A DNA stretch of 64,000 nt, taken from contig NZ_JAGIQL010000001.1 of NCBI RefSeq assembly GCF_017813245.1, positions 1 through 64,000 on the forward strand, read 5' to 3'. The position numbers were made by a program, and so were the translations under genes. Below, piece by piece: positions 31,233 to 47,313 of this stretch. Under the pieces are notes generated by a model. The model had not been told where the DNA came from and did not search any database. It was given only the letters and a program-made list of their open reading frames with translations. This DNA is from Streptomyces montanisoli (GTDB lineage Bacteria > Actinomycetota > Actinomycetes > Streptomycetales > Streptomycetaceae). Positions within the stretch are counted from its first letter, which is position 1. Every line of letters starts with the position of its first letter.

Positions 31233-33133
31233 GCGCGCTGCTCCTCGTTGTTCGCGGCTCTCCGGTAACGGCCGATGCCGGTGATCCGCGGGACGATCCA
31301 CACGCCTCGCTCCCCGAGACCGGCGTTGGCACCGGCAGCGGTGCTGCCGGTCACGGTCTCCAGGGTGTCGATCCGCAGGCCGTGGATCTCGTCGGGCCAC
31401 CAAGGCTCCCAGGAGCGGTTCACCTTCTGCACCTGGAACAGCTCCTCGCGAAACCTCTGCGAGGCCTCGCCGATCTCACGTCCTTCGTGCACCAGGGCGT
31501 ACGGCGGGCTCTCCGCCTCCCCCATGGGCAGACCGTGACGCCTGCGCAAAAACACCTCCTGACCGGGACGGACCTGGTCCAACAGGTACGCCTGAGTGGC
31601 GACGGCGTCCGTCTCCCGGCCGGGCGGATCGTCCCGACTCACGTCACCCGACTCGGCGACGATCCCGTACCTGTCGTACGACCGCCACGACCCGAGGTAG
31701 CGACGGCCACGGTGCCGGCCTCCGGCCCTTCTGAACAGCGGCAGTTCGGGAGGGGACGCGTGGTACAGGTCCTGACGGGCCCGCGTCATCGCCACGTACA
31801 GGGCGCGCGCCTCGCCCGGAAGGTCCAGTTCATCACGATATCGCTTGCGGAGTTCGGCGAGGGCAGGTGGCGTCAGGACGATCGCCCGGTCGAACTCCAG
31901 GCCCTTGGCCCGGTGCACCGTCGAGACGACGACGTCGGACGTCTCCGGGTCGGCCGCCTCGTCGGGGAATCCGCCCCGGCCGACCACCCGGCGCAACCGA
32001 TCCAGGTCCAGCACGCCGCGTCCCGCTCCGCGCGCGGCCCGATGCAGCACTGCCCACAGAGCCGTGGCGTCGGGCTCGTACGGGAGCGGGATGCCCGCGA
32101 GGAGCGCACGGAACCGTTCCTCGGCGAGGGCGTTCGCCTCCGTGCGGCGCAGCAGCTCGGCGACCCAGTACGGCACCGGACGCTGTTCCAACGGGCGGCG
32201 CAGCCGGTGGTCGATGCCGTGCGCGTGCAGCAGGTCGGAGACAACGAGGGCCTGCTGGTTGTCACGGGTGAGGATGGCGCATGTGTCGGAGAGGCCCCGC
32301 AGACCGTCGAGGGTGAACTCGTCCTCCAGGCCCCCCATCGCGTTCGCCGGATCCAGGAGGAGATCGCGCAGTTCGGCGTAAAGCGTTCCGGCCTCGTCCG
32401 GATCGCCCAGCTCTTGGAGGCGTGGGCCGAGCGGCAGGGCGACCCGGGCCTCGACGGTGGCGGCCCGGAAGTTCTGGGTGAGGTGCAGCTCCACCAGGTC
32501 GTCGGGGTATGAGCATCGCAGCCAGTCCAGGAAGCGGCCGGTCTCGTCAGCACGTTCACTCAGGTCATCGATCTGGAAGCCGTACACGGACTGGGCGGCG
32601 TCCCCGACGAGGGTGAAGCCGCAGCTGTCCTGGTAACGATCGAGAAGCGTCTCCACGAGCTCGCGGCGTCCACCCAGGAGATCCTGCACCTCGTCGATCA
32701 CGACATGGGCCGGCGGGACCGCGTCGCCGATCTCCAGTGCGCCCTGCTCGATGGCGCGGGCCGCGCCGGCGATCCGCTCGTCGAAGCCGACCGTTCCCCA
32801 CTCGTCGTCCGGACGAGCCTGGCGGAGCACCTCGTAGGCCCATGCGTCGAACGTACGGGCGCGCACCCGATGGGCTCGTTCTCCGTGCCGGGAGATGCGC
32901 TCGCGCAACTCCCGGGCGGCGGCCCGGGAGAAGGTCAGCACGAGGATCTCCGCGGCCTCCAGTGCCTGCTCTGGGTCCTCGTGACCGCAGAGCGCGTCGA
33001 GTCGACGCACCAGAGTGTGGGTCTTTCCGGCACCGGCGCCAGCGGTGACCAGTACACGAGCGTCCCAGGGTTGCTCGACCACGGCCAGTTGCTCTTCGGT
33101 GAGCGGGGGACTGTCCTGGTAGGCGTCGGTCAC
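31229..33133 (-). CDS. UvrD/Rep-type SF1 helicase of the defence operon
   Basis: A 634-residue superfamily 1A helicase. Motif I is TAGAGAGKTHT (30-40), motif Ia LTFSRAAARELRERI, motif II VIDEVQDLL (DEVQ 147-150), motif III LVGDAAQSVYGF, motif IV region LTQNFRA, motif V VVSTVHRAKGLEF and motif VI LYVAMTRAR. It is shorter than housekeeping UvrD or PcrA (about 720-780). After motif VI about 160 residues have no recognisable domain; these may bind a partner or DNA. GTG 33133 overlaps the upstream gene's stop and its own stop overlaps drmA, so it is an integral operon member. UvrD-like helicases are not part of classical DISARM. Confidence 0.85.
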   Translation of the reverse strand: MTDAYQDSPPLTEEQLAVVEQPWDARVLVTAGAGAGKTHTLVRRLDALCGHEDPEQALEAAEILVLTFSRAAARELRERISRHGERAHRVRARTFDAWAYEVLRQARPDDEWGTVGFDERIAGAARAIEQGALEIGDAVPPAHVVIDEVQDLLGGRRELVETLLDRYQDSCGFTLVGDAAQSVYGFQIDDLSERADETGRFLDWLRCSYPDDLVELHLTQNFRAATVEARVALPLGPRLQELGDPDEAGTLYAELRDLLLDPANAMGGLEDEFTLDGLRGLSDTCAILTRDNQQALVVSDLLHAHGIDHRLRRPLEQRPVPYWVAELLRRTEANALAEERFRALLAGIPLPYEPDATALWAVLHRAARGAGRGVLDLDRLRRVVGRGGFPDEAADPETSDVVVSTVHRAKGLEFDRAIVLTPPALAELRKRYRDELDLPGEARALYVAMTRARQDLYHASPPELPLFRRAGGRHRGRRYLGSWRSYDRYGIVAESGDVSRDDPPGRETDAVATQAYLLDQVRPGQEVFLRRRHGLPMGEAESPPYALVHEGREIGEASQRFREELFQVQKVNRSWEPWWPDEIHGLRIDTLETVTGSTAAGANAGLGERGVWIVPRITGIGRYRRAANNEEQRA

Positions 33134-36100
33134 TTCCGGCTCCAGAGGTGCTCGAACTGGTTGAAGGCGAGTTGCGTGTCGAAGTTGGCGATGTTGTCGC
33201 TCACGTTGAGGATCAGGCAGCTCTTCTTGCCACCGTTCAGTGGCCCGCGCAGTCCGCGACCGATCATCTGCTGGTACACGTTGGTGCTGTAGACCGGTCG
33301 TGCCACGACCACGGCACGCGTGGCAGGAGCGTCGAAACCCTGAGTGAGGACACCGTAGTTGGTGAGGACTCGAATGCGGCCGCCTCGGAAGTTCTCGATG
33401 CGGTTTCGACGGTCTTGTGCGCTGGTCGTGGAGTCCACGGCGGCGGACGTGACACCTTGGTCGTTGAGCATGGCCGCCAGGTATTTGGCGTGGTCGACAG
33501 AGGTGGCGAAGAGCAGCGTCGGCCAGTCGTCCGGCAGCTCGGTGATCGAGTCGACGATGCGTCGGCTGCGTGCATGGTCGTCGGCGAGCCGTTGCTCGGC
33601 CGATCGGGAGAGCACGGCCATGCGATCGGCGTGTGTCTTCTCGTCCCGTGTGAGTTCGATACGGCCGCCCTCAAGGGTGCGGTGCTCGACCTGGGCGAGC
33701 ATCCCCCAGTGCTGGAGGTCGCGATACGGGTCGCCCGACGGGAAGACTCCTTCGTCGAGTCGCCGATTGCCGAAGCGGCTGACCAGGCGGCGCGTCTCCT
33801 CCTCGTTGGTGTTCCGGAACGGGGTGGCGGTCAGGCCGAGAAGGTGCCGTCCGGTCTCGTACTGGGTGAGCCCCAACCGGCCGAGGATGGCCGTGTACCG
33901 CTTGGAGATGGCGGTGTGCGCCTCGTCCACGATCACCAGAGCGGCCTGACGCAGCCAGGCGTACTGGTCGGTGCCCAGGCACCGCTCCAACTTGGCGTCG
34001 GTGGCGACCACCAGGTGCGGGTGGTCGACGACGTTCCCGACCTCGTTGGTGCTCACGAGTCGGCTGATCGTCAGCGGCCGTTCGGCGCCGACCTTGCTCC
34101 AGACGAACTTCCAGCTCTGGAAGGCCTGCTCGCACAACTCCTCGGTCTGCGCGATCCACAGCAGCGGGCCCTTGAGGTCACCGACCCGTTTCACCCAGCG
34201 GATCACGGCCTCGGCGGTGACCCGGGTTTTGCCGGCGCCGGTCGGCAGCGACAACATGCCGCGTTGGGGCGCCAGTCGGTCGAGCATGGTGGAGATGTTC
34301 CGAACCAGGTCCTCCTGGTACTCGTGCAGGTGCGGGAAGTCCCGAGGGCCTTCGACGGTCTCGAACGGAGGCGGAGACGGAGTCCTCGAACCGGCGAACG
34401 CGACAGGCAGCCTCAGTTCCGAGACGAATGCGATGGCCGCTGATGAGCCTCCGTATGCGACCGGGGCGTTGGGGAAGCGTGCCTGGATGTCCCGGACATG
34501 CTGCTGGAGCACTCCGTCACCGTGCGCGTTGAACGCCATCTGTGCGATCCGGCGCCCGGACGGCTCAGCCCCATCGGTCGCCTGCAACTCGGCCTCCATC
34601 AATCCTTCGGGGAGGCCGGCCCTGAGCGCGTCGGCACCGATCAGCAGCTCGATCTTGGCCACCACGTCGTCGGCCTCACGCACTGCCTGCTGCGCCGCCT
34701 TCAGCGCACTGTCCCGAGCCATGCGGTCCTGGTGCTCAAGCACAGCGCGGCAGCCGGCAGCACCGAGGCCCAGGCCGAGTTCGCGGTCGATCAGTCGCAG
34801 CATCGGCTCGGGATCCTGGGGAACGCGGACCTTGACGGTGCTGTCCTGGCGCACGGCGTCCAAGGGGGAGGCGTGCGTGCCGTTGGGCGTACGGGTGACC
34901 TCCTCCAGCTCACTGCACCGTTGCACCAGGCTGTTGCGGTTTCCGCTGTTCAGACGCTGCCGCAGGGCGGGGAACAGCTCGACCAGCGGTACCGGTCCCC
35001 CTTCCGGGACCTCGCGGGTCTCCCGGCTGATCACGTCGGCGTAGCGGAGCATGCCCCACTTCTCGATCATCAGCTCGGCGTCTTCGGCGGTCGGAACGAG
35101 CAACGCCGGAAGTTGCTCGGCACGCAGCGCGCGGTACTGAGCGGATCCCACGGCGATCGTGATCTCGTCGTCGGACCGGGTGCCCCAGTCGTCGCCGATC
35201 CTGCAACGAGTCAGGGAGTCCTCGGGGAAGTCGGCACCGAACCGGGTCAGCATCACGTAGGTCGCGCCCACGAAGGAGTCGTCCTCGCTACGGGTCACCT
35301 CGTCGAGGAGCGCGTCCCAACGGTCGGCGGGGACTTCGTCGACGGTGGTCGGAAGCCGCAGCCTGCGAGCCTTTTCGGGAGAGATGTCGGCGACCGGCAG
35401 CACATCCCGGTAGCCGGCGAGCTGAGGGCCGACGGCCTCATTGAGCGGCTTGATCCCTTGGGAGGTGGCGATCGTGCCGAACTTCCTCAGCATCCAACGG
35501 ATCGGCGAGGGCACCGCCTGCCGAGTCTCGCTCCGTGCGCCGATCTGGCGCGTCCAGTTGTCCACCAAGGCGTCGTCGGGCAGTACCTTCAGGAAGGCGG
35601 CGCGGGATTCCTCGGAGAGGGCGCGGAACAGGTGGAGCGGGCCGCCGATGGCGGCGCCCTCGACCTTCATGCGGTTCAGCGTGGGACGCGGGGCGCTGCT
35701 GTCCAGGCGGCGCAGGTAGGCGGTGTGGAGGGCTTCGCGGTACTCCTCGAACCACGCCTCGCCCTCCTGTGGTCGGACACCGCCGGTCGGTCGTTCCCGC
35801 AGACCGATCTGGGAGAAGAAGGGGGTGTCGTCGGAGTGGAACGTCATGTCGACAGCGATGCTCGGGTCCCGCTTCGCGTCGACCACGATGCCCGGCAGCA
35901 TGCAGTCCTCGACCGGCCGGAACCGACCGTCGGCGGTCCGCACCCGGAGTGTCGAACGTGCGGCGGGCACCCGCTCAAGGACCTTGTGCGCCAGGCGACG
36001 GATCCCCGCCTGGCGGAACAGCTCCCAGAACCGCTCCCAGTCAGACTGGCTGTAGTGGTCGAAGCCCTGATCGAGGACGCTGTCGAACCGTCCCTCGACA

Positions 36101-37902
36101 TCGGCCTCCCGGATGCCGAGGATGTCGAGAGCGTGCGTCAGCGAGGGGTCCTGGGCAAGCTCGTCGACCACGTACACCAGGGATTCACGCAATCCGTCCT
36201 GATCGGTACGGCGGTAGACCTTGCCGGGCACAGGGGCGACGAGACCGTCCTCCTCGGTGAGGACGATGTGGGCCTTACGGGCCTCCTCGACGAATGGGGA
36301 ACCGACCGCGATCATGTCGGCGAGGATGCGGATCGCGGTCGCGGAGGCCTGCGCGGTACCACCCTCGACAAGGGCCTCCAACCATTCGCGGACGCTGGCT
36401 CGTTGGTGCTTCGCCGCACCGAGGATGTGCTCGACCTTGCCGGAGCGCAGAACGTCCACTTCGACGCTGGGATGCAGCCAGTTCGCCGGACGGTCCGGGC
36501 ACTCGTGCCACAGCCGCAGCCAACGCAGGAGAGATTTCGACTCCCTCTTCGGGTCCTTGGGACGAGGGTGCACTCGCAGCGCGGCCGGCACGCGCAGCAC
36601 ACCGTTCTGGTCGGGAAGCGACGGCGTCACCGCGGCACGCCGCCAGATCTCCTCGGTCAGGAACTCGTCCGCCCAACTGATCGCCTCCTTCGCACGGCCG
36701 GGCAGCAGAGGGAGATAGGCGGCCGGGTCCTCGACGGGTGCCAGGGCGAGAAGCGACTCCACGACCAGTTGTGCCGCCGCTCGGATCATCTCCTGGTTGA
36801 AGGGTGAGGAGTCGAGAAGATTCTGTCGGTCCTCGTTCGTCTTCCAGGCGCCGTTGAGGATGCCGCTCAGTGACATCTCGTACTTGGTCGGGAAGAAGGA
36901 CCAGAACTTGCCGCGTCCGCGCGCGCGGGGGCTGACGAACAGGCCGCTCTCCGGGTCCTTCTCCAGGGCGGGGACGCCCCAGGCAAGGTCGAGGGAGAGC
37001 CGGTCGTGCAGCTCTCCGGCGTCTGCGCGGGCGCTCGGACCGGGCTCGTGGGTGGTGGTGAACACGCGCCACCGTTCGGTGGCGACAGCCTTCCCGGTCC
37101 GCTCCTCGACCACGGTGTGCAGGTCGCCGGTGCGCTGGGCGGTCAGTGTGCGACGGGCCATGGGCCGTGGCCGGCGGTCCTCCAGGACGACCTTCGCGAC
37201 GTGCGGTGAGAAGAGTTGGAAGCCGACCGGAAATTCCTCGCGGGGTTCGCCGTGGTCCTTGGCACGGCCGCCGTGCATGTCCCGGCTCAGCCGGCCGTCC
37301 GCCTTGGGAAGCAGGGGCAGACGAACGACGGTGGTGGCCCAATTCAACAGCTCGTGCAGGACCTGATCGGAGCTGCGCTCGGCCTCCACGTCCAGGGGTC
37401 GGCCCATCCGCAGCACGGGGGCGTCGAACTCCGGGCCATAGCGCGCCGTCACGCCGGGCACGGCCCTGATCTGGTCGTACGACCATGCACGGTCGAATCC
37501 GAAACTTCCGGTGCTGCTGAAGAATTCCGGTGCGTCGGTCACCACGAGAACCGATTTGACGCCCACCCCGAAGCGTCCGATCTGGCCGCCGCGCTTCTTC
37601 GACATGCTCATCCGGAGAATCGTCTCGGCGCCTTCCGGGGTCACCGGCTTGCCCTCGTTCGCGCAGTACAGGTGCGTTTCTGTGAGGACGACATGAACTC
37701 GCCCACTCGACTCGTCGGCCATCTCGTCTGCCGCGTTCTGCACGAGTTCGAAAAGCTGGCGATCGCCATATCCACCTTGGGTGATACGACGCTCTCCATT
37801 GGCATGCTCGGCCACGAGACCGGGGTCCACGGCGTAAGTCTGCAGGACGCGGGAAGATTGTTCGAGAACGGTTCCAATTACTGAAGATGTCGAAGACGGC
37901 AC
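33130..37902 (-). CDS. Sacsin-like GHKL ATPase fused to SF2 helicase
   Basis: A 1590-residue protein, first in the defence operon. The N-terminus is a GHKL ATPase of the sacsin/HSP90-like type: ELVQNAADE (residues 52-60) gives the N box and IGRFGVGVKSVL (108-119) the glycine box. A region of about 1050 residues has no domain I can name. The C-terminus is an SF2 helicase: Walker A LPTGAGKT (1219-1226), VDEAHTAI (DEAH at 1326), GLTATPF (1356) and motif VI MIGRGLRG (1546). GTG 37902 follows AGGAGA. Sacsin-type ATPase and helicase in one chain suggests a DNA-remodelling machine or a sensor with two ATP switches. I infer that it takes the place of the missing DrmD or DrmE. Confidence 0.85.
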   Translation of the reverse strand: MPSSTSSVIGTVLEQSSRVLQTYAVDPGLVAEHANGERRITQGGYGDRQLFELVQNAADEMADESSGRVHVVLTETHLYCANEGKPVTPEGAETILRMSMSKKRGGQIGRFGVGVKSVLVVTDAPEFFSSTGSFGFDRAWSYDQIRAVPGVTARYGPEFDAPVLRMGRPLDVEAERSSDQVLHELLNWATTVVRLPLLPKADGRLSRDMHGGRAKDHGEPREEFPVGFQLFSPHVAKVVLEDRRPRPMARRTLTAQRTGDLHTVVEERTGKAVATERWRVFTTTHEPGPSARADAGELHDRLSLDLAWGVPALEKDPESGLFVSPRARGRGKFWSFFPTKYEMSLSGILNGAWKTNEDRQNLLDSSPFNQEMIRAAAQLVVESLLALAPVEDPAAYLPLLPGRAKEAISWADEFLTEEIWRRAAVTPSLPDQNGVLRVPAALRVHPRPKDPKRESKSLLRWLRLWHECPDRPANWLHPSVEVDVLRSGKVEHILGAAKHQRASVREWLEALVEGGTAQASATAIRILADMIAVGSPFVEEARKAHIVLTEEDGLVAPVPGKVYRRTDQDGLRESLVYVVDELAQDPSLTHALDILGIREADVEGRFDSVLDQGFDHYSQSDWERFWELFRQAGIRRLAHKVLERVPAARSTLRVRTADGRFRPVEDCMLPGIVVDAKRDPSIAVDMTFHSDDTPFFSQIGLRERPTGGVRPQEGEAWFEEYREALHTAYLRRLDSSAPRPTLNRMKVEGAAIGGPLHLFRALSEESRAAFLKVLPDDALVDNWTRQIGARSETRQAVPSPIRWMLRKFGTIATSQGIKPLNEAVGPQLAGYRDVLPVADISPEKARRLRLPTTVDEVPADRWDALLDEVTRSEDDSFVGATYVMLTRFGADFPEDSLTRCRIGDDWGTRSDDEITIAVGSAQYRALRAEQLPALLVPTAEDAELMIEKWGMLRYADVISRETREVPEGGPVPLVELFPALRQRLNSGNRNSLVQRCSELEEVTRTPNGTHASPLDAVRQDSTVKVRVPQDPEPMLRLIDRELGLGLGAAGCRAVLEHQDRMARDSALKAAQQAVREADDVVAKIELLIGADALRAGLPEGLMEAELQATDGAEPSGRRIAQMAFNAHGDGVLQQHVRDIQARFPNAPVAYGGSSAAIAFVSELRLPVAFAGSRTPSPPPFETVEGPRDFPHLHEYQEDLVRNISTMLDRLAPQRGMLSLPTGAGKTRVTAEAVIRWVKRVGDLKGPLLWIAQTEELCEQAFQSWKFVWSKVGAERPLTISRLVSTNEVGNVVDHPHLVVATDAKLERCLGTDQYAWLRQAALVIVDEAHTAISKRYTAILGRLGLTQYETGRHLLGLTATPFRNTNEEETRRLVSRFGNRRLDEGVFPSGDPYRDLQHWGMLAQVEHRTLEGGRIELTRDEKTHADRMAVLSRSAEQRLADDHARSRRIVDSITELPDDWPTLLFATSVDHAKYLAAMLNDQGVTSAAVDSTTSAQDRRNRIENFRGGRIRVLTNYGVLTQGFDAPATRAVVVARPVYSTNVYQQMIGRGLRGPLNGGKKSCLILNVSDNIANFDTQLAFNQFEHLWSRK

Positions 37903-38285: not shown

Positions 38286-38802
38286 ACCCCAATTTAGACC
38301 GCACAGGGGTGTATGTGAATACAGATTTCCCCCGCGAACAGTAAGATTTCTTTACCTCTACGTCGATCAGGCTAGCGATGCGCGGCTCGTGTCGCCAGTC
38401 GTTTGCGAAGTCGTCTCACGTGTGGTAATGACGGCCCGGTGTGCGGTTCTGTCACCTGCTCGTGCGGAATTAAATTTAGACGCACCTCTCCCCCTGCCGC
38501 TCATTCCCCCGCAGTTCGGGTTCTTGAGCGAGATGGATTTCCCATCACCAACAACAATAGAATGGTCGCCCTGGTTTGCGCAAGACGAACTGCCCAATCT
38601 CTGCGAGGAGTTACCGACTCCGGGTGTGCGAATCGCCCGCTGACGTACATGTTGCTCATTCAGGGCAAACTGGGCGTCGAGTTGAAGTGATGTCATCGAT
38701 CAAGACGATCAACTAGTGGTTGACTGCGCCGACCCTGTCAAATTAACGTCGTGATCCGCGCCATGCGATCCGGATGGCGGCCAAGGGAAGAGCAGGTGGG
38801 GC
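38286..38802. promoter_or_regulatory. AT-rich control region of the defence island
   Basis: This 517-base gap separates the two divergent halves of the island and is clearly richer in A and T than its surroundings. A near-direct repeat AATTTAGAC(C)GCAC occurs at 38291-38304 and 38473-38485. CGATCAA is repeated at 38697-38703 and 38706-38712, just before the rightward promoter, and is a candidate operator for the HTH of the gene at 38803. An open frame at 38389-38643 has no coding bias, so I leave it out. The leftward promoter is not obvious. Confidence 0.55.
38720..38749 (+). promoter_or_regulatory. Candidate promoter of the rightward defence operon
   Basis: TTGACT (38720-38725) and TAACGT (38744-38749) are separated by 18 bases and would start transcription about 47 bases before the GTG at 38803. 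This is a good match to a housekeeping-type promoter. Confidence 0.55.
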
Positions 38803-40953
38803 GTGGAGACAGGTGAGGAGTTCGGGCCTTGGTTGGCCCGACAGCTCAAGCTCGCAGGGAAGACGCAGGCCGAACTGGCCGACGAGCTCGACCTGACTCG
38901 GGCCGCTGTGTCCGCATGGATCACCGGCCGATCGACGCCTCGTCCGACCGTCATGGTCGACATCGCCAGGGCGCTCGGCACGGATGTGGGCACGGTGCAC
39001 ACCCGTAACACCGATACCCAAGCCGGCCTGCCGGTCACCTGGTACCACCGCCCCGGCTACCCCGACGGCGGCCGCGACCTGGGTAACGCCGCGGCCTTCG
39101 CCTTCGACGCCGATGTGCAGGTCCTCGCACGGGAGACGTGTCAGAACAGCCTGGACGAGCGGCTGACGGAGAACGGCCGTCCGGTCAAGGTTCGCTACAC
39201 CCTCCACGAGCTCACCGGCGAAGCCCTGGGCGCCTTCCGTGAGGCGATCCTCTGGAACGATCTCTTTCCGCACTACTCCGCCGTCTCGGAGACCGCTGGT
39301 ACCCAGAAGGTCGGTCGGGTGGTGGACGCCGGTGTGCGCGACATGTACGAGAAGGGCCGCCTGGTCCTGCTGCGCGTCGACGACTACAACGCCTCCGGAC
39401 TCATCGGCGACGATTACTCGGACGGCAAGTTCGCGGCTGTGGTCAGGCGTCAACTGGAGAGCCTCAAGTCCGGCCCCGGGGCGGGCGGTTCGTACGGACT
39501 GGGCAAGGCGACGCTGTGGGCCACCAGTGCCCTCGGGCTCGTCCTCATCAACTCCACCCTCTCCGTGCCCCACGAGGGGCGTACCGAGCGACGGGTCATC
39601 GGGCGTCTCGAACTGCCCTGGCGTGAGGTCGACGGCGAGTCGTACGCGGGCCCTGCCTGGTTCGGGCGCCCTGATCCCGACTCGCCCGGCGCCATGGTCG
39701 CCCGTTCCTGGTGGGCGGACGAGGAGACCGTCGAGAACCTGTATCTGGCCCGGGAGAACGACGAGCCCGGTACGTCCTTCCTCATCGTCGGTGCGCACGA
39801 TGTGGCCGGACTCGCGGCGCAGTCCTCCGACCCCGACGACCTGCCCATCGGCGACGAGGAGGACGTGGACACCCGCGACATCAAGACGATGCACGCGCGA
39901 CTGGTCGAAGCACTGGGGCGTGACTTCTGGGCCGCGATGACCGGCGGGGGGAGCAGGCTCCCCCTCCTGGAGGTCTCCGTCCGTGCCCTGAGGAACGGCG
40001 AGGAGGTCGTGGCGGAGCAACGGGTGGACCCGTCCGTCGAGCAACCTTCCCGTACCCGCGCCCTGAGGGCGTACTACGAGGGCACAACCGTGAGTCGCCT
40101 CACCGAGGCGGGGCAGGTGGCGGAGCGGAACGTCCCGCTGAAGCTGCCGTTGTCCGGGGGCGCTCATGGGACGTTCGGTACGCACCAAGCGGTTCTGCTC
40201 GTCACCGAGGCCGAGGGGGACAAGGACGGGGCGAAGAACAGGATGCACTCGCTGCGGGGCAACCGCATGACCGTCAAGAGAAGTGTGGTTCAGAGACTGC
40301 CGGCCAACACCAATCCGTTCCAGGCCGTTCTGCTGGTGGGGGAGGCAGCCGGAGAGACGGCCCCCTTCGCGAAGGAGGCCGAGGAATTCCTGCGTGCGGC
40401 GGAACCTCCCGAGCACGACCGTTGGGGGCAGACGGAGGAGCTGACGCTGCGCTGGTCGCCCTCCGCGTACCGGCGGATCAACGCGCTGACCGCCGACGCC
40501 AACAACGCGGTGAGAGAACTCGTCGCCCGTCCGAAGCGCGGTGGCGGCGAAGGCGCTGAGGCCCTGCGCAAGGCATTGACGGTGCGACCAAGGCCCAAGG
40601 CCAAGAGCCCCACCGGCCCGGTGGTTCCGGTTCTGGACGGGCTCGAAGCGACGGTCGGCGATGCAGGGGAGTGGCAGATCACCGGCGAAGTGAGCATCCC
40701 GCGTGGCGACGAGATCGTCCCGATGGTGCCCGTGGCCCAGCTCGACGTGCGCTCGGGGGGCCGCCCCCGGCTGGACTGGGCGGAACTCGTGGGTGTCGAG
40801 GGCTGCGAGGCGGAGAACGGAACACTGCGCTTCACCCCCGGCGCGCGGAGAGCGAAGTTCCGAGGAACCACCGACGTCACCAGCCACGCGGTCAGGACCA
40901 CTCTGACCCGTCTTGTTGTCGAGCTCCGTGCCGGCAAGGGGAGTGACGCGTGA
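38803..40953 (+). CDS. HTH fused to MORC/MutL-like GHKL ATPase
   Basis: A 716-residue protein. Residues about 8-66 form an XRE helix-turn-helix (GKTQAELADELDLTRAAVSA). The following ATPase has the N box ETCQNSLDE (E111, N115, D118), a G1-like loop DDYNASGL (193-200) and G2 box GGSYGLGK (228-235), matching GHKL ATPases of the MutL/MORC type rather than histidine kinases. The C-terminal 350 residues are beta-rich and unassigned. Prokaryotic MORC/MutL-like ATPases are known beside cytosine methyltransferases and Vsr in restriction-type systems. The HTH suggests self-regulation. GTG 38803 starts the operon and its stop overlaps the next gene (GTGA). Confidence 0.75.
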   Translation: METGEEFGPWLARQLKLAGKTQAELADELDLTRAAVSAWITGRSTPRPTVMVDIARALGTDVGTVHTRNTDTQAGLPVTWYHRPGYPDGGRDLGNAAAFAFDADVQVLARETCQNSLDERLTENGRPVKVRYTLHELTGEALGAFREAILWNDLFPHYSAVSETAGTQKVGRVVDAGVRDMYEKGRLVLLRVDDYNASGLIGDDYSDGKFAAVVRRQLESLKSGPGAGGSYGLGKATLWATSALGLVLINSTLSVPHEGRTERRVIGRLELPWREVDGESYAGPAWFGRPDPDSPGAMVARSWWADEETVENLYLARENDEPGTSFLIVGAHDVAGLAAQSSDPDDLPIGDEEDVDTRDIKTMHARLVEALGRDFWAAMTGGGSRLPLLEVSVRALRNGEEVVAEQRVDPSVEQPSRTRALRAYYEGTTVSRLTEAGQVAERNVPLKLPLSGGAHGTFGTHQAVLLVTEAEGDKDGAKNRMHSLRGNRMTVKRSVVQRLPANTNPFQAVLLVGEAAGETAPFAKEAEEFLRAAEPPEHDRWGQTEELTLRWSPSAYRRINALTADANNAVRELVARPKRGGGEGAEALRKALTVRPRPKAKSPTGPVVPVLDGLEATVGDAGEWQITGEVSIPRGDEIVPMVPVAQLDVRSGGRPRLDWAELVGVEGCEAENGTLRFTPGARRAKFRGTTDVTSHAVRTTLTRLVVELRAGKGSDA

Positions 40954-41945
40954 AGTTCTATCCGTACAAGCGGCTCAACCGGCCTGTCACGCTCAGGGTG
41001 ACCTCGGTGTCCCTCAAACTCTCCGACGGTACCCGCGACCAGTTGGAGACCACGGCATACTCGACCCAGCAGCAGGCTGTCGCCCTCGGCATCGCGGGGC
41101 ACACGGACTGGGTGAGCGCCACGGTCGGTCTGTCGGTGACGCTGCCGCCCGGGGCGAACGCCCCCGACGCGGCCTGGTCGGACCTGTGCGTCCTGGCGGT
41201 ATTGACGGACGGGGAGACCAATGTCCGTACCTCCGCCAATCTCACGCTCGACGTGGAGGGTGGCCGGGACTGGTCCGGCTCGTTGGAGGTATTCCGCGAC
41301 GATCACCTGGGTCGGGCCTCCCTCGCCGTGTACGCGGTCGGGACGGTGGACGGAGTGCGCGGACGGTCGATCGCCGAGACCGACCGGAACTGGGTCATCG
41401 ACGCGGTCTCCGACGAGCCGGTCCACGGGCTCCGACTGAACGTCCAGAAAGCCTCGTTCAGGAAGAGCGCCCGGGAGTGGCTGCAGGTTTACGCCGACGC
41501 TCCCTGGGTCGTGGACACCTCGGCCAGGGTCCCCACCGTCTTCGTGAACACCGACGTCGAAGGCATCATCGACCTGTTGGACAGCAGTGGTTCGGGTGTG
41601 GACAGCAAGGTGCGTGACCTTCTGGTCGCTCAAATGGCCACCGACGTCTGGACCGCGGTGTTTCACGGCGCCATCGGCGACCTGGAGGTGGATCCCGCCG
41701 GAGGGCCGGTCTTCCCCACCGACTGGCAGGGTGAGGTGCTGCGAGAGATGCTCCCGGACGTGATTCCCGGCGTCCACGTGGAAGAGGCCCTACGGCAGGT
41801 TCATCGCCGAAGGACCGGTGACTCGGGCTGGACGGAACTCCAGACGCGCATCCATTACGCGGCCGTGCGCCGCGCCGACGCCTCCAAGGCCCTTGCCTTC
41901 GTCATCCGCGGCCTCGAACAGATGAACCGGGAGAGTGAGACGTGA
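40950..41945 (+). CDS. Unrecognised 331-residue protein of the GHKL operon
   Basis: The protein begins (GTG) KFYPYKRLNRPVTLRVTSVSLK and shows a beta-rich first half (about 1-165) and an alpha-rich second half with DLLVAQMATDVWTAVFHGAI and GEVLREMLPDVIPG. I do not recognise a catalytic motif, signal peptide or membrane span. It overlaps both neighbours by 4 bases (GTGA at 40950 and 41942), so it is very likely made in fixed ratio with the ATPase and forms a complex with it. A DNA- or protein-binding adaptor is one possibility; the function is unknown. Confidence 0.7.
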   Translation: MKFYPYKRLNRPVTLRVTSVSLKLSDGTRDQLETTAYSTQQQAVALGIAGHTDWVSATVGLSVTLPPGANAPDAAWSDLCVLAVLTDGETNVRTSANLTLDVEGGRDWSGSLEVFRDDHLGRASLAVYAVGTVDGVRGRSIAETDRNWVIDAVSDEPVHGLRLNVQKASFRKSAREWLQVYADAPWVVDTSARVPTVFVNTDVEGIIDLLDSSGSGVDSKVRDLLVAQMATDVWTAVFHGAIGDLEVDPAGGPVFPTDWQGEVLREMLPDVIPGVHVEEALRQVHRRRTGDSGWTELQTRIHYAAVRRADASKALAFVIRGLEQMNRESET

Positions 41946-42820
41946 TCACCCAACCGAACCACGTACCGGAGCGCCTGGGGCTGCTTGTCACCTCCGCCGT
42001 CGATCCATTCCTCACCGAGGAACTGCTCAAGGGCGAACAGGTACACGGCGGCATCGATCTCGCCAAGGTCGTGGAACCGCTCCCCGAGGACGACGCCAGG
42101 TGGTGGGTCGAGCCGATCCGGAGCCTGGTGGAAGACGCCATGTTCGAGTTCCGGGAGGATCGCACCCTGGCCGACGCATGGCTCGCGCCGCGGCTGCATG
42201 CCACCCTGCGGCTGACACGACGAGAAGCGGCGGACAAGCGTCTGTGGAACCACCTTGCCCTGGCCGTGGCCCCGGATTATGTCGTCTGGCGGCACCTTTC
42301 GGAGTCGACGGCGAACAGACCGGAAAGGCGTGTCGCCGCCGAGCGCTTCCGTGGCCCCGCGGACCGTCAGTGCTTCTCCCGTCTGTGGTGGGCGGCCGAA
42401 CTCTTCAGAAACGGGTCGGACTACGAGCCGGTCGAACTCGCCTGCGGAAATCAGGACCTCATCCACACCGTTCTCCGGAGCGAGCTGATCGATCACCGTC
42501 CCACGGCTCAGGCGTTGGTCCGTCTCCTGAAGAGCGGACAAGTATCCGGGGGGCGCGAGGTCAACGGCCTAAGCGTCGCCATAAATGCGGCGGGTGCGAC
42601 CTTGATCTACGACGTACTCGCCCCGGACCGGCCCCGCGACCCCACCCGTCTGCGGGACTGGATCGCGGAAGCCGAATCTGCGCCACCGGTCCAGCGGTAC
42701 GAACTCCCCGACGGCCCCGACGAGGATCCTGTTCCTGAGGAATCCGTGGCAGCGCTCGCGGGCTACTTCGCGGAGCTGTTCGAGACTGCGCCGGTCAGGG
42801 GCAGGAAGAGCGGGGACTGA
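41942..42820 (+). CDS. Unknown protein, possibly DUF6339-like, ending the GHKL operon
   Basis: A 292-residue, mostly helical protein. Segments RLWNHLALAVAPDYVVWRHL and CFSRLWWAAELFRNGSDY resemble the DUF6339 family as I remember it, but I am only moderately sure. It is preceded by a 4-base overlap (GTGA) and is the last gene of the rightward operon. There is no catalytic motif or export signal. It ends 17 bases before the convergent methyltransferase gene. A structural or adaptor role in the ATPase complex is plausible. Confidence 0.6.
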   Translation: MITQPNHVPERLGLLVTSAVDPFLTEELLKGEQVHGGIDLAKVVEPLPEDDARWWVEPIRSLVEDAMFEFREDRTLADAWLAPRLHATLRLTRREAADKRLWNHLALAVAPDYVVWRHLSESTANRPERRVAAERFRGPADRQCFSRLWWAAELFRNGSDYEPVELACGNQDLIHTVLRSELIDHRPTAQALVRLLKSGQVSGGREVNGLSVAINAAGATLIYDVLAPDRPRDPTRLRDWIAEAESAPPVQRYELPDGPDEDPVPEESVAALAGYFAELFETAPVRGRKSGD

Positions 42821-42837: not shown

Positions 42838-44205
42838 CTACTCTGCCGACACCTTCTTGCCCCTGCTCTGACGAGGGCGCACGGAGGAAGGGGGCGGAAC
42901 CTGGTCCTCGGGGCGCGGGCACCTGTCGGTGCAGGTGTCGGCGGCCCCGCAACCGTTGCCGCGAAGCTTGGCACGCTGTTCCTCCGTGGCCGGCTGCCAT
43001 GGTTTCCTCAATGCCTCCGGGTCCGGCTGGGGGAGCCCCAGGGCGGCGCTCAGCAGGTATGTGCCGAACAGGGGCGGCACGGCGTTGCCCACCTGCTGGG
43101 CCTGCGCCGTCCCGGACCACGGATAGTCCGGCGGGAAGCTCTGCAGCATCCCCGCCTCGTTCATGCTGAACCGCGAGCCCTCGTAGACGATCTTTTCGTC
43201 GAGGTGCTGGAAGACCACGAAGCGGGAGATGCGGCCTGTGACGGTCGTGGCGGGCTGCTGGTCGGTCCGCACTCCTCGCCTCCCCGGGTTCCCGGAACTT
43301 CCGTAGTTCGAGCGGACCAGGAAGGGAGTGTCACGCCCCGGATGCGAGCCCACCGGCCTCGCAATGGCGTCCCGCATCGATCTCCAGGGCAGTAGGTCCG
43401 CGTCGTTCCTCGACACAGTGGTGTCCTCGTCGAGAGACGGCTGACGCGGCTGGTCCGCGGCCTGACCGGGTTCGCTCGTTCCGTTCTTCCGATTCCATTC
43501 CTTCGCCTCGTAGGCACGATGGGTCGGGGCGGGGAGCGAGGGCTTGCCGAGCCCTTCACGTCGAGCGATCAGTACAGCGCGGGATCGCGTCTGGGGCACC
43601 CCGTAGGTCTCGGTGGCGAGAGTGTCGACGACGACCTTGTACCTGGTCCCGTCGGGGAGCCCTGTCTCCTCCAGCACCTTGGCGTAGTGCTCCCAGAGCG
43701 GTGCCACCGCGGGGACCTGTTCCAGGACGATGACGTCGTACGGACGGTGCTCCCGACGCGGGCTCCGGGTTGCTTGAACCGCGTAACGGAGAGGCTCGAG
43801 GACCAACGCGGTACGCGGATCGGTGAGACTCTTCAGGTCCTCGTCGATGTCCCGGTCGGATTCACCCGCCATCAGCCTCTCGATGTACCCCCTGACCCGG
43901 TCCAAGGCCTGGCGTCCGGCGCCGTGCCCGGCCACCGAGTAGGTCTGGCACGGAGGACCGCCCGCGAGTACGTTGATCTCCGGCGGCAGCGTCTCGAAGG
44001 AATCTCTGCGTACGGCGCCCACGTCGGCGTGGAGCGTGTCCAGGCCGGCCGCGTATCGCGTGAGGCACGCACTTCTGTCCCACTCGATACCGAGACTCGG
44101 GATGTCGAGCGTGTGGCCGGCGACATCCAGCCCTCCGGGCCCCGCGAAGAGATCCAGGACAAAGGGCTTGTCGAGGATGGGCTGATGGTGCGCCGAGCTG
44201 GTCAT
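42838..44205 (-). CDS. DNA cytosine-C5 methyltransferase (catalytically complete)
   Basis: A 455-residue methyltransferase. Motif I is LDLFAGPGGLDVAG (17-30), the catalytic Pro-Cys is in AGGPPCQTYS (Cys86), motif VI is LEQVPA in place of the usual ENV, motif VIII is QTRSRAVLIA and motif X is AQQVGNAVPP. Residues about 250-340, between motifs VIII and IX, would form the target-recognition domain. The tail is rich in Pro and Cys. The ATG at 44205 is near the start of motif I. It is 11 bases downstream of the second methyltransferase-like gene. It probably marks the host DNA, but the target sequence is unknown. Confidence 0.88.
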   Translation of the reverse strand: MTSSAHHQPILDKPFVLDLFAGPGGLDVAGHTLDIPSLGIEWDRSACLTRYAAGLDTLHADVGAVRRDSFETLPPEINVLAGGPPCQTYSVAGHGAGRQALDRVRGYIERLMAGESDRDIDEDLKSLTDPRTALVLEPLRYAVQATRSPRREHRPYDVIVLEQVPAVAPLWEHYAKVLEETGLPDGTRYKVVVDTLATETYGVPQTRSRAVLIARREGLGKPSLPAPTHRAYEAKEWNRKNGTSEPGQAADQPRQPSLDEDTTVSRNDADLLPWRSMRDAIARPVGSHPGRDTPFLVRSNYGSSGNPGRRGVRTDQQPATTVTGRISRFVVFQHLDEKIVYEGSRFSMNEAGMLQSFPPDYPWSGTAQAQQVGNAVPPLFGTYLLSAALGLPQPDPEALRKPWQPATEEQRAKLRGNGCGAADTCTDRCPRPEDQVPPPSSVRPRQSRGKKVSAE

Positions 44206-44216
44206 GTGGCCGAAGT

Positions 44217-45398
44217 CTAGCCGGCCGTGCGGGTCCCAGGATCCCTGTTCAACGCTTCGGCCACGGCTCGTCCCAACGACTCTCCGACCGGCGGTGGGGT
44301 CGCGTGCCCGATCTGACGGTATCGGGCGGTCTTGAGACCGGAGATCCGCCACGCTTCGGGGAAGCCCTGGAGCAGGGCGGTCTGGTCCACCGTGATCCTC
44401 ACCAGTCCGTCGTCCCCGAGTGACGGATCCCACGTGAAGTCGGGGCCCGGCGGCTCGTTCCCGAACGACTTCGTGTAGACGCCCATACGTCTCCACTTGG
44501 CCTTTGTGCCGCTCGGCCCGAAGTCAGGACCTCCGTGCGTCTTGGATCCGCCCACCAAGGTCGGCGCCACACTCGTTGCCTGGGCCACCCAACGGTCGGC
44601 GTCCCGCCAGCCGCGGGAACGCATCGACGGTGCCAGTGCCTCTCCGACCGATACGTGCTCGTGGGCGATGGGACGGGGCGGTCGGAAAGCACTTGCCCAC
44701 TGCTGCTTCACGGCCACGAGGACCCCTTGCATACGGTCCTGGGGCACTGCGAAGTCGGAGGCGTTCAGGATGAACCATGTCAGCTCATAGCCGAGGTGCT
44801 CCAGTTCCTTGTGGAGGAAGTCCCGTACGGGCGCCAGGGAGTCCTGGTCGACCAGCGTGGGCACGTTTTCGATGATCAGTGCGCGTGGTTGGACGGCGTG
44901 CACGAGGTACGCGGTCGCCTCGATGAGCCGCAACTCGGTGTCCGACGACTGGCGCGTCACTGACGCGCTCGACTTCACCCTGGGTAGCCCAGCGGCCAGC
45001 AGATCGACGTCGTACACCTCGGGGTGATCCACGGGGTCGAAGTCGAGAAGGTCCGCCTTCAGCACGTTCCAATGCGGCCGGTTGGCATTGAGCGTGTCGC
45101 AGGCAGACGACTCGTTGTCCAGGAGCAGCCGGGGCGTGAAGCCCGCTCGTTCCAGTCCCAGAGCGAGTCCGCCCGCTCCCGAGCACACATCGACGAAGCT
45201 CAGTCCGCTCAACGATTCCTCCCCCGCCCCCGATGAACCTTCCGCCGCTCCACCGCCACCGCGAAAGGAGCCACGGCCATGCGGCCCCTCATACTCCCAG
45301 AAGCGCGGCAGCTCCCGGCCGCCCGCTACGAGCCGTCCAGCGGTCTCGGAATCGCGCGCCGGCGCTCCGAAGGGGCTGCGATGGGAAACTGGAGGCAT
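44217..45398 (-). CDS. C5-methyltransferase-like protein lacking the catalytic cysteine
   Basis: A 393-residue protein with most cytosine-methyltransferase motifs: motif I FVDVCSGAGGLALGLERAG (68-86), motif VI LIIENVPTL (ENV near 177), motif VIII QDRMQGVLVAV and motif X RQIGHATPPPVGESL. Where the catalytic loop should read GGPPC it reads AGLPRVKSS (136-144), so the nucleophile is absent. It may be an inactive partner that helps target recognition, like DNMT3L for DNMT3, or it may bind cofactor or DNA without methylating. The start at 45398 is uncertain because the first 60 residues look weakly coding; an internal start is possible. It lies 11 bases before the active enzyme gene, on the same strand. 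Confidence 0.75.
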   Translation of the reverse strand: MPPVSHRSPFGAPARDSETAGRLVAGGRELPRFWEYEGPHGRGSFRGGGGAAEGSSGAGEESLSGLSFVDVCSGAGGLALGLERAGFTPRLLLDNESSACDTLNANRPHWNVLKADLLDFDPVDHPEVYDVDLLAAGLPRVKSSASVTRQSSDTELRLIEATAYLVHAVQPRALIIENVPTLVDQDSLAPVRDFLHKELEHLGYELTWFILNASDFAVPQDRMQGVLVAVKQQWASAFRPPRPIAHEHVSVGEALAPSMRSRGWRDADRWVAQATSVAPTLVGGSKTHGGPDFGPSGTKAKWRRMGVYTKSFGNEPPGPDFTWDPSLGDDGLVRITVDQTALLQGFPEAWRISGLKTARYRQIGHATPPPVGESLGRAVAEALNRDPGTRTAG

Positions 45399-45825
45399 GG
45401 CCCCGACAGCATCGTCACCCGCCGTGGCAGCGCGAATGAGTCGCCAGTCGTCCCGCGACACAGCGCAGGAGCTGGCCGTGCGCAGGCTGCTGCACCGCCG
45501 GGGCCTCCGGTACCGCCTCCACGTGCCTGTGCCGGGTATGCGGCGCAGGACGGTGGATGTCGTCTTCGGCAAGGCGCGGATAGCGGTCTTCTTCGACGGT
45601 TGCTTCTGGCACGGCTGCCCTGAGCACGCCACGAGTCCACGTGCGAACGCTCAGTGGTGGCGGGCGAAGCTCGATCGAAACGCTTCGCGGGACCGGGAGA
45701 CCACGGACCATCTGGTCGCCGAGGGATGGACCGTGATGAGGTTCTGGGAGCATGAGCCCGCGGAGGAAGTGGCCGAGCAGATCACTCTCGCCGTTGAGGC
45801 AGGGCGGGCTTGCCCGCCACAGTGA
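45397..45825 (+). CDS. vsr: Vsr-type endonuclease (very-short-patch repair family)
   Basis: A 142-residue nuclease with the Vsr fold. RRTVDVVF supplies the active-site Asp, and FFDGCFWHGCPEH is the Vsr signature with the zinc-binding Cys/His pattern. WWRAKLDRNASRDRETTDHL and VMRFWEHE complete the core. Vsr enzymes cut beside T:G mismatches that arise when methylated cytosine deaminates, and Vsr-like nucleases are also restriction effectors in some systems. ATG 45397 overlaps the divergent methyltransferase-like start (CATG at 45396-45399); an ATG at 45436 is an alternative. No other mismatch-repair gene is nearby. Confidence 0.85.
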   Translation: MAPTASSPAVAARMSRQSSRDTAQELAVRRLLHRRGLRYRLHVPVPGMRRRTVDVVFGKARIAVFFDGCFWHGCPEHATSPRANAQWWRAKLDRNASRDRETTDHLVAEGWTVMRFWEHEPAEEVAEQITLAVEAGRACPPQ

Positions 45826-46251: not shown

Positions 46252-47100
46252 TCACAGCTCCTTCGCCATTCGGAGGATGAGGTCACGCGAACGCGTGGGT
46301 TCGAGTGATGCAGCTTCTACCCTACGGAAAAGGGCTCGATAGCGAGCGAGTTGACTCTCTGCGTCGACGAACCTGTGCTCATTGGGTCCGTCGATGCCGA
46401 GAGTGTCCAGCTTGGGGACCGGGCCGCCCGCGTACACCATGGCGCTTCCCGCTCCGGCGAAGCCGTCCAAGTCGAAGGGGATGACCCGTACGGTGATGTG
46501 GTCGGCTTCAGAGAGTTCAAGGACGCGCGTGAGCTGGGCCCTTGCAGCGCCTCGGTCGCCGACCCTGATGCGCAGCGCTGCCTCGTGGATCACCGCTTCG
46601 TACGGGATCGGGTCGGGCCGATCGATGATGACTGTGCGCCTCATCCGGTGTTCCACCCATCGCTCCACATCGCTTCTTGGTAGTTCCGGGTTGACGAATG
46701 AGAAGAGGGCGAGGGCATAGTCCTCCGTCTGCAGCAGGCCTGGTACGTGCAGGAACTCGACGTCCCAGCGGTAGCCGGCGTGGTGCTCCAACTCAGCGAG
46801 ATCGAGGAACGCCTTTGGCAGATCGCGGTAGGCCTCCCACCATCCGCGCGTACGTTCGGTCGCCATCGCCACCAGAGCTGAAATCAACTCCTCGTCAGCG
46901 CAACTGCAATGAGCGGCAAGTCGTCGCACGCGTTCCTCGCTGACGCCGGTGGCCCCCGACTCGATGTGACTCATCTGGACCGAGTTGGAACCGAGCAGCG
47001 CCGCGGCCTCACGGGCCTTGAATCCAGCGGCCTCACGTAGTTTCCGCAGTTCAGCCCCCAGGCGAACCTGGCGTGCAGTGGGTTGCAGCCTGGGCGGCAT
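46252..47100 (-). CDS. XRE-family regulator with DUF5753 domain
   Basis: A 282-residue regulator. The N-terminal HTH (RQVRLGAELRKLREAAGFKA, then REAAALLGSNSVQMSHIESG) is followed by the DUF5753 domain (about 100-270), with YRWDVEFLHVPGLLQTEDYA, RRTVIIDRPDPIPYEAVIHE and VRVIPFDLDGFAG. In Streptomyces such proteins pair with DUF397 and with an ATP-binding protein in developmental and antibiotic control. It is divergent from the ATP-binding gene at 47314 and directly upstream of the DUF397 gene. Confidence 0.9.
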   Translation of the reverse strand: MPPRLQPTARQVRLGAELRKLREAAGFKAREAAALLGSNSVQMSHIESGATGVSEERVRRLAAHCSCADEELISALVAMATERTRGWWEAYRDLPKAFLDLAELEHHAGYRWDVEFLHVPGLLQTEDYALALFSFVNPELPRSDVERWVEHRMRRTVIIDRPDPIPYEAVIHEAALRIRVGDRGAARAQLTRVLELSEADHITVRVIPFDLDGFAGAGSAMVYAGGPVPKLDTLGIDGPNEHRFVDAESQLARYRALFRRVEAASLEPTRSRDLILRMAKEL

Positions 47101-47313
47101 GGCCTTCTCCTCACCTTCAGGGCGCGTTGGCGTTGGGAACCCGTTCGAGCTCAGATTATGCGGGCCGGTTGCACGGGTGCAAATTTATACCCTACTGTCG
47201 GTGACGCAACGCACACGCAGCGGAAGTGCACCGCTCCGTCGTGTCATCGACGGCTGCGGCAATGCCACCGCTTGAACCGCAACCACGTGCCCACCCCGAA
47301 ACGGAGCTGACGC

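What the first reader, a model, noticed from the sequence alone, without database searches (positions are those of the whole stretch)
38803..42820. HTH-GHKL ATPase operon with two unknown partner proteins
Three genes are joined by GTGA overlaps. The first protein carries its own HTH before a MORC/MutL-like ATPase; the other two have no recognised domain. Tight coupling implies a stable complex. The HTH suggests the system represses itself until triggered.
Basis: partly seen in the sequence, partly recalled or inferred. Interest (0 to 1): 0.75.

Follow-up and report, generated by a model that had tools for sequence, protein, structure and literature searches.

The report
Self-regulated ATPase module of DISARM defence
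A three-gene unit with a DNA-binding, MutL-like ATPase sits inside a bacterial DISARM anti-phage island, probably controls its own switch-on through a conserved site at its promoter, and in other genomes is plugged into a different defence system, so it looks like an unstudied shared front end of bacterial immunity.

Summary
The operon is real. A (38803-40953) joins an HTH to a GHKL ATPase. B (40950-41945) models as a beta-sandwich plus helices. C (41942-42820) is DUF6339. PADLOC lists A and C as candidate PDC-M33. In the 80 closest relatives, A, B, C and a C5-methylase homologue occur in 80 of 80 and DrmA in 79 of 80. The link is not exclusive: in a wider Streptomyces set, 13 of 70 A-B-C loci carry Mza-type genes and no DISARM gene in about 20 kb, and 20 of the 80 carry both. 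The unit looks like a shared front end. Self-regulation is plausible: TCAA-N7-TTGAC-N13-GTCAA overlaps the promoter in the window and, with two spacings, stands upstream of A in 65 of 80 relatives; it is less regular in the wider set (45 of 70). Two surprises: the adjacent methylase lacks its catalytic cysteine (Arg or His in 71 of 71 loci read), and in 11 of 80 loci A shares one open frame with a sigma-70 factor. Mechanism is inferred; nothing was tested at the bench.

The parts
38803..40953 (+). gene A: HTH_3 + GHKL (paraMORC-type) ATPase, 716 aa
   Evidence: PADLOC PDC-M33A 1.3e-20
38836..38988 (+). HTH_3 domain of A (residues 12-62); recognition-helix region TRAAVSAW
39133..39156 (+). GHKL N-box ExxQNxxD (residues 111-118)
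   Evidence: invariant in 20 of 20 rows
39484..39507 (+). GHKL G2 box GGxxGxGK (residues 228-235)
40402..40416 (+). EPPEH (ExxxH) motif, residues 534-538
   Evidence: E534, P535, P536, H538 invariant in 20 of 20 rows; compare the paraMORC2 ExxxH
38709..38741 (+). putative operator TCAA-N7-TTGAC-N13-GTCAA
38720..38749 (+). putative promoter TTGACT-N18-TAACGT overlapping the operator
   Evidence: conserved in close relatives; not called by the consensus scanner
40950..41945 (+). gene B, 331 aa: predicted beta-sandwich plus helical C-terminal part
41942..42820 (+). gene C, 292 aa: DUF6339, predicted all-alpha; PDC-M33C
42838..44496 (-). C5-methylase homologue with catalytic motif GGPPCQ (DNMT2)
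44217..45632 (-). C5-methylase homologue lacking the catalytic Cys (GLPRVKS; Arg codon about 44979-44981) (DNMT1); domain starts about 45220
45082..45825 (+). Vsr-family endonuclease; domain about 45430-45753
   Evidence: TIGR00632 104.6 bits over cut-off 97.85
33130..37902 (-). sacsin-like ATPase domain + ResIII/DEAD helicase (N-terminal match to TmtA)
31229..33133 (-). UvrD-like SF1 helicase (GajB-like)
27975..31403 (-). DISARM DrmA helicase
   Evidence: NF038325 1014 bits over cut-off 950; PADLOC 1e-243
26110..28158 (-). DISARM DrmB (MZB/DUF1998)
   Evidence: NF038324 467 bits over cut-off 240

Best explanation
A-B-C with its C5-methylase homologues is a recognition and control front end that in this window serves a DISARM island, and in other genomes serves Mza-type genes instead or as well. 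SHOWN by sequence: A is an HTH plus a GHKL ATPase of the paraMORC kind; C is DUF6339; the triad travels with C5-methylase homologues, mostly with Vsr, and with DISARM and/or Mza-type genes; conserved half-sites overlap the promoter of A. INFERRED: A dimerises and changes shape with ATP, as MutL, MORC and HSP90 do, and links a reader of DNA methylation state to the helicase-nuclease machine next door. Free A sits with its HTH on its own promoter and keeps the operon low; engaged by foreign DNA and partners it leaves the site, and more of the module is made.
For: DISARM link: DrmA and DrmB exceed curated cut-offs. In the 80 closest relatives A+B+C in 80, at least one C5-methylase homologue in 80, DrmA in 79. 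In 13 of the 80 that DrmA is only 36-39% identical to the window's, two Nocardia loci included. Haloarchaeal plasmids carry a DISARM series, A-B-C and a C5-methylase together. Shared front end: 13 of 70 A-B-C loci of a wider Streptomyces set have MzaC, MzaD and MzaB homologues and neither DrmA nor the sacsin-helicase in about 20 kb; 20 of the 80 carry MzaC and MzaB homologues beyond Vsr as well (19 near full length). Autoregulation: the three-half-site pattern is in the window, 57 of 80 (N7) and 8 of 80 (N6), with one further N7 match in 3.48 million strand-bp of the 80 loci; a stricter form has one match in the own 7.24-Mb genome. Reader: DUF6339 is fused to the same Cys-less methylase type in 6 of 6 fusions read. 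Methylated DNA lowers DrmAB ATPase activity (PMC9142583, passages).
Against: No experiment and no complex prediction. A was not modelled, so dimerisation and an S5 domain are assumed. A-B-C with a methylase also stands without helicases on a cyanobacterial plasmid and beside pPIWI-RE genes in L101, so no single effector is needed. The 80 loci are the best 80 of 312 relatives, hence close. Operator and HTH: in the 80 the match is clean (65 with site and TRAA[VI]SAW, 0 with site only, 2 with helix only, 13 with neither), but in the wider set it is not: 43 both, 2 site only, 13 helix only, 12 neither. The inner pair TTGAC-N-GTCAA is upstream of A in 54 of 70 there. In a second subclade (e.g. L151-L160) the half-sites lie further upstream of the likely -10, which would also suit an activator. 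The consensus scanner does not call this promoter. Archaeal and cyanobacterial loci have only an active-motif methylase.
Confidence: 0.5

Rival explanations
1. A-B-C plus a C5-methylase is an independent defence system (PDC-M33 proper) that only shares islands with DISARM and Mza-type genes, with no mechanistic partnership.
For: Minimal A-B-C-methylase locus without helicases on a Synechococcus plasmid; two A-B-C units near one annotated C5-methylase in Halomicrobium; neighbours change between DISARM, Mza-type and pPIWI-RE genes; PADLOC lists M33 separately.
Against: DrmA near A in 79 of the 80 closest relatives, with divergent DrmA groups, and again in haloarchaea.
Confidence: 0.33
2. The HTH aims A at its target or activates transcription, rather than repressing its own promoter.
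For: Half-site spacing to the likely -10 differs in a second subclade; HTH and site do not match one to one in the wider set; in 11 of 80 loci A is in one frame with a sigma-70 factor, which points to switching on.
Against: In the window's subclade the site overlaps the -35 element, and a strict form has a single match in the genome.
Confidence: 0.28
3. The HTH-GHKL protein is a stand-alone regulator unrelated to defence.
For: None found.
Against: In the sample searched A was not found without C: 53 of 53 A-positive genomes are C-positive; a C5-methylase homologue is near it in 80 of 80 close relatives.
Confidence: 0.02
4. A mismatch-repair (very-short-patch) unit protecting 5mC sites rather than a phage defence.
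For: Vsr and a GHKL ATPase with C5-methylases, as MutL/Vsr/Dcm; PMC2292703 section 6 allows rare recruitment to repair.
Against: DISARM core, UvrD-like and sacsin helicases in the same island; patchy distribution (84 of 392 genomes with a strong C match).
Confidence: 0.07

Closest known systems
PADLOC candidate PDC-M33 (PDC-M33A, PDC-M33C)
   Same: A matches M33A (1.3e-20) and C matches two M33C models (2e-11 and 1.2e-6).
   Different: Here A has an N-terminal HTH (the M33A match starts at residue 104 of A) and the operon lies in a DISARM island; B matched no PADLOC model. A search for 'PDC-M33' gave 0 papers.
paraMORC GHKL ATPases of restriction-modification operons (Iyer, Abhiman and Aravind 2008, PMC2292703; sections 4-6 read)
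   Same: GHKL motifs; ExxxH motif as described for paraMORC2; operons with SF2 helicases, C5-methylases and Vsr.
   Different: DISARM, DUF6339, an operator, a Cys-less methylase and a sigma-70 fusion are not in the sections read; 'HTH' occurs once, in a figure legend. Assignment by accession was not possible.
DISARM (PMC9142583, passages read)
   Same: DrmA, DrmB and a C5-methylase homologue in one island.
   Different: No DrmC/PLD gene among the island proteins scanned and no PLDc_2 (PF13091) match in the whole genome; extra UvrD-like and sacsin-ATPase helicases, two methylase homologues, Vsr and A-B-C.
mza system (MutL, Z1, DUF, AIPR; meaning of the name recalled, models MzaB, MzaC, MzaD from PADLOC)
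   Same: In other Streptomyces A-B-C and both methylase types stand beside MzaB, MzaC and MzaD homologues.
   Different: No Mza-type gene in the window. A itself matches M33A and not an Mza model.

Membership tests
DISARM | DrmA helicase | tested here: met
   NF038325 1014 bits over cut-off 950; PADLOC 1e-243
DISARM | DrmB (DUF1998/MZB) | tested here: met
   NF038324 467 bits over 240; MZB 1.5e-9
DISARM | DNA methyltransferase (DrmMI/DrmMII) | tested here: met
   C5-methylase homologue 42838-44496 with GGPPCQ; its best PADLOC model is MTase_II, DrmMII models are weaker
DISARM | DrmC PLD nuclease (typical, reported non-essential) | tested here: not met
   no PF13091 match in the own genome; none among the island proteins scanned
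DISARM | phage restriction | not testable with these tools
   needs a bench assay
PDC-M33 | M33A GHKL protein | tested here: met
   1.3e-20
PDC-M33 | M33C protein | tested here: met
   2e-11
PDC-M33 | a second partner (position of B) | tested here: inconclusive
   B has no PADLOC hit up to E 0.1; that a separate M33B model exists is assumed from the naming
paraMORC2 | GHKL ATP-binding motifs | tested here: met
   invariant residues
paraMORC2 | ExxxH motif late in the S5 domain | tested here: met
   EPPEH 534-538, E and H invariant in 20 of 20 rows, as described in PMC2292703 section 5; that it lies in an S5 domain was not tested
paraMORC2 | S5-fold domain after the GHKL domain | not tested
   A was not modelled
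paraMORC2 | operon with SF2 helicase, methylase, Vsr | tested here: met
MORC | GhXhhpXXRhl motif | not tested
   motif read, not searched for
mza | Z1 (MzaC), DUF4420 (MzaD) and MzaB genes | tested here: not met
   no tblastn hit in the window at E 1e-3 or better with MzaB, MzaC and MzaD homologues of L086 and the Z1 and DUF4420 proteins of L105

The most novel reading that the evidence does not exclude
One exchangeable front end serves several immune machines: a GHKL ATPase reads the output of a methylation sensor built on a catalytically dead C5-methylase and DUF6339, hands the target to DISARM or to an Mza-type machine, and reports straight to transcription, through an HTH on its own promoter in one lineage and through a fused sigma-70 factor in another.
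Probability: 0.3. Interest if true: 0.88.

Novelty: new variant of a known kind. Interest (0 to 1): 0.7.

Why it matters
How DISARM recognises foreign DNA and is kept in check is open; the structural paper asks in its discussion how less-conserved subunits affect specificity (PMC9142583, passages). This module offers defined partners found from Streptomyces to haloarchaeal plasmids, a predicted operator, a Cys-less methylase that could act as a reader, natural sigma-70 fusions, and the prospect that two separately described defence systems share one recognition unit. Each is directly testable in harmless laboratory Streptomyces.

Tried and rejected
Stand-alone regulator: not supported in the sample searched. 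Odds of the best explanation were lowered from 0.55 to 0.5 for these reasons. Nuclease in B or C: no family match; fold searches gave background-level matches only. B: best VIA Z 7.7, rmsd 3.7, 100 residues, N-terminal sandwich only, helices hardly tested; the one Foldseek row below 1e-3 has TM about 0.2. C: best Foldseek E 0.67; best VIA Z 5.6, rmsd 3.1, 64 residues. This does not show a new fold. Profile search against PDB sequences matched only the HTH of A and nothing significant for B or C. A on phages: no match. Middle gene of the distant triads: detectable in haloarchaea (hmmsearch E 5e-7 to 1e-6; hhalign E 2.7e-5), weak in Synechococcus (hhalign E 5.6e-4; no hmmsearch hit), not detectable in L101 or L102; there it is 'B' by position only. 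Generic promoter scan: promoter of A not found. A first strict palindrome matched 28 of 81; the pattern was then relaxed after looking at the sequences (58 of 81; N6 or N7), so it is fitted to these data. A first sigma regex failed (1 hit) and was replaced (11 hits). Dropped rows: L147 left out of the tree because its model of A is 487 aa. Tree: the sigma-fused loci are not one clade; 10 group near the Nocardia pair, L191 lies apart. In one search hits under 45% identity were left out; one search has no such limit. The 20 upstream stretches were picked from loci that already showed the sacsin-helicase. C-positive genomes G004 and G167 (weak C) gave no A match. Structure jobs used 61 of 81 B and 61 of 81 C sequences.
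Full report
OBSERVATION. In the 80 closest relatives the B-C overlap is -4 in 80 of 80; A-B is -4 in 41, -1 in 3, a gap of 2-4 bp in 35, and 1 model of A is cut short. A carries HTH_3 at residues 12-62 (1.3e-11). Pfam scores no GHKL domain in A, but A matches PADLOC PDC-M33A (1.3e-20), and the motifs ExxQNxxD, D...GL and GGxxGxGK are invariant in 20 aligned sequences down to 21% identity. C is DUF6339 and PDC-M33C. B has no family match.

SETTING. 27975-31403(-) is DISARM DrmA and 26110-28158(-) is DrmB, both above curated NCBIfam cut-offs. 31229-33133(-) is a UvrD-like helicase and 33130-37902(-) joins a sacsin-like ATPase domain to a ResIII/DEAD helicase. Downstream of C lie two C5-methylase homologues on the minus strand and a Vsr gene. 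No PLD gene was seen among the proteins scanned and the whole genome gives no PLDc_2 match. No Mza-type gene is in the window.

TWO SETS OF RELATIVES. Set 1: in 392 Streptomyces genomes 105 match C, 84 strongly (E below 1e-69) and 21 weakly; 80 stretches (12-20 kb) were fetched from genomes of that list, one of them (L108) from the own genome outside this locus, and 70 of the 80 hold A, B and C by tblastn. Set 2: a scan of GTDB genomes found 312 relatives of A and kept the best 80, so it is biased to close relatives. The sets overlap in genomes. In 199 Streptomyces genomes the GHKL part of A matches 53 (44 strong, 9 weak); compared by eye all 53 are C-positive, while two weakly C-positive genomes (G004, G167) gave no A match.

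CLOSE RELATIVES (SET 2). A, B and C occur in 80 of 80 and at least one C5-methylase homologue in 80 of 80; DNMT2-like hits in 79, DNMT1-like in 72, Vsr in 71, the sacsin-helicase in 68, UvrD in 66. DrmA lies in the stretch in 79 of 80, L167 being the miss; in 13 (L176-L178, L183-L191, L193; two of them Nocardia) it is only 36-39% identical to the window's. In 20 upstream stretches, picked from set-1 loci that already showed the sacsin-helicase, DrmA, DrmB and UvrD are present in 20 of 20. In 20 of the 80, MzaC and MzaB homologues lie beyond Vsr as well, 19 near full length and one (L134) in fragments.

WIDER STREPTOMYCES (SET 1). Of 70 A-B-C loci, 50 have the sacsin-helicase and 5 others a DrmA in the stretch held; 15 have neither. 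In 13 of these 15 there are homologues of an MzaC-, MzaD- and MzaB-type series, called by PADLOC for L086 (MzaC 2.6e-61, MzaD, MzaB), for L098 (all three) and for the MzaC of L085, L087 and L092. Two, L068 and the 12-kb L112, showed none. So the A-B-C unit is shared between DISARM and Mza-type loci.

BEYOND. tblastn of A against 72,556 plasmid records gave 5 records, four haloarchaeal and one cyanobacterial; four were opened. Halobaculum and Haloplanus have a triad with DUF6339, a C5-methylase, and a helicase, Zn-binding or hypothetical, and PLD series; for Haloplanus these match PADLOC DrmA, DrmB and DrmC. Halomicrobium has two triads by annotation and one C5-methylase between them. Synechococcus has the triad followed by a C5-methylase and no helicase. 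The A proteins of Halobaculum and Synechococcus match PDC-M33A. The six distant A proteins aligned lack the HTH. Weak-hit Streptomyces loci show a Z1 and a DUF4420 gene before the triad (L105), a Z1 gene with a DUF6339-methylase fusion and DrmA/DrmB nearby (L102), or a pPIWI-RE cassette beside it (L101, which also has Z1- and DUF4420-like hits).

REGULATION. Upstream of A close relatives share one strongly conserved block: TCAA-N7-TTGAC-N13-GTCAA. It is in the window (38709-38741) and 57 of 80 of set 2; in 8 more the first spacer is 6. One other N7 match occurs in 3.48 million strand-bp of these loci, and a stricter form has one match in the own 7.24-Mb genome. In set 2 all 65 with the site keep TRAA[VI]SAW in the HTH; of the 15 without it, 2 keep the helix and 13 do not, L193 having no recognisable HTH at the modelled start. 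Set 1 is less clean: 43 both, 2 site only, 13 helix only, 12 neither; the inner pair TTGAC-N9-15-GTCAA is upstream of A in 54 of 70, among them 7 of the 13 Mza-only loci, at a background of about 0.006 per 300 bp. The patterns were fitted to these sequences, and the loci are few lineages, so this shows conservation and is no independent test. Repression by A is the simplest reading; activation remains possible.

SIGMA FUSION. In 11 of the 80 of set 2 (and 4 of 70 in set 1) the frame of A is open far upstream (423-580 codons in set 2) and holds sigma-70 region 2 and region 4 signatures. Two were scanned with Pfam: L176 has regions 2, 3 and 4; L177 has 2 and 4, with region 3 just under its cut-off. 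No stop separates sigma from A, so a fused product is expected, but Shine-Dalgarno-like sequences before the A start in several would allow a separate A as well. On the tree ten lie near the Nocardia pair and L191 lies apart, so the fusion may have arisen more than once.

CYS-LESS METHYLASE. DNMT1 has GLPRVKS where C5-methylases have the catalytic PC (established knowledge). Of 71 set-2 loci with a hit across the motif, 70 have Arg, 1 His, none Cys; 9 loci have no such hit. DNMT2-like hits above 45% identity have PPC in 82 of 82 over both sets. Six DUF6339-methylase fusions read have GLPRVKS in 6 of 6; the four archaeal and cyanobacterial methylases have an active-type PC motif.

STRUCTURES. 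B models with pLDDT 88.4 and pTM 0.63, a beta-sandwich and C-terminal helices; matches are at background level. C models with pLDDT 86.9 and pTM 0.88, nearly all helical, without a usable match. Neither match list points to a nuclease.

MECHANISM. Best-supported reading: A-B-C with its methylase homologues is a front end for DISARM here and for Mza-type genes elsewhere. Inferred steps: the active methylase marks self DNA; the Cys-less one with C reads methylation state; A, an ATP-driven clamp of the paraMORC kind, passes this to the helicases and a nuclease such as Vsr; free A represses its own operon. Published support is indirect: DrmAB ATPase activity is lower on methylated DNA (PMC9142583, passages), and paraMORCs were proposed to loop DNA in R-M systems (PMC2292703, section 6). 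The main rival is an independent defence unit that shares islands.

KNOWN OR NEW. PADLOC lists the A and C families as a candidate, and A fits the description of paraMORC2 in its ExxxH motif. The link to DISARM, the operator, the sigma-70 fusion and the Cys-less methylase were not found in the open library: 'DUF6339' 0 papers, 'PDC-M33' 0, five defence terms with Vsr, DISARM and Streptomyces 0 with four or more, DISARM gene names with Vsr 11 papers, DISARM with GHKL, Vsr and DUF1998 9 papers, sigma factor with GHKL, DISARM and paraMORC 0, Cys-less methylase terms 0, DISARM with Streptomyces 4 papers. Most of the papers listed were seen as listings only; passages of PMC12458937, PMC8011034 and PMC9142583, and sections 4-6 of PMC2292703 were read. 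The original DISARM and mza reports (recalled) were not seen.

Noticed in passing
window 44217-45632 (-), Arg codon about 44979-44981: C5-methylase homologue with GLPRVKS in place of the catalytic PC motif; Arg in 70 and His in 1 of 71 loci with a hit (of 80), never Cys.
   Followed up: partly
L176, L177, L178, L183, L184, L185, L187, L189, L190, L191, L193, upstream of A: A sigma-70-like factor lies in one open frame with the HTH-GHKL protein in 11 of 80 loci, in two places of the tree.
   Followed up: partly
L082, L085-L088, L090, L092, L093, L095, L098, L109-L111: A-B-C and methylase homologues beside MzaC, MzaD and MzaB homologues, with no DISARM gene in the stretch held.
   Followed up: partly
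L100, L102, L103, L104, L106, L107: DUF6339 region in one ORF with the Cys-less C5-methylase type; L102 also has Z1 and DISARM genes nearby.
   Followed up: partly
L101 6442-18288: Distant A-C pair with a middle gene, beside a pPIWI-RE cassette.
   Followed up: no
L219, L222 (haloarchaeal plasmids): Triad with DUF6339 plus C5-methylase, DISARM-like series and a SprT-like gene; L219 also has a PADLOC REase_II-like ATP-binding protein overlapping the methylase gene.
   Followed up: partly
window 45082-45825 (+): Vsr is divergent from the methylase genes here; in 71 of 71 Vsr-positive close relatives it is on the strand opposite to A.
   Followed up: no
window 33130-37902 (-): A second ATPase domain of GHKL type (sacsin-like), fused to an SF2 helicase, in the same island; its N-terminal part matches PADLOC TmtA.
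   Followed up: no
window 46252-47727: DUF5753 XRE regulator (-) and a HATPase_c_2 protein (+), a common Streptomyces pair (recalled); few of the set-1 loci show both near A-B-C.
   Followed up: no
window 25339-25980 (-): ECF-type sigma factor next to drmB.
   Followed up: no
L060 / L147: Interrupted A gene (487 aa model) in a locus otherwise like the others; described, not mended.
   Followed up: no
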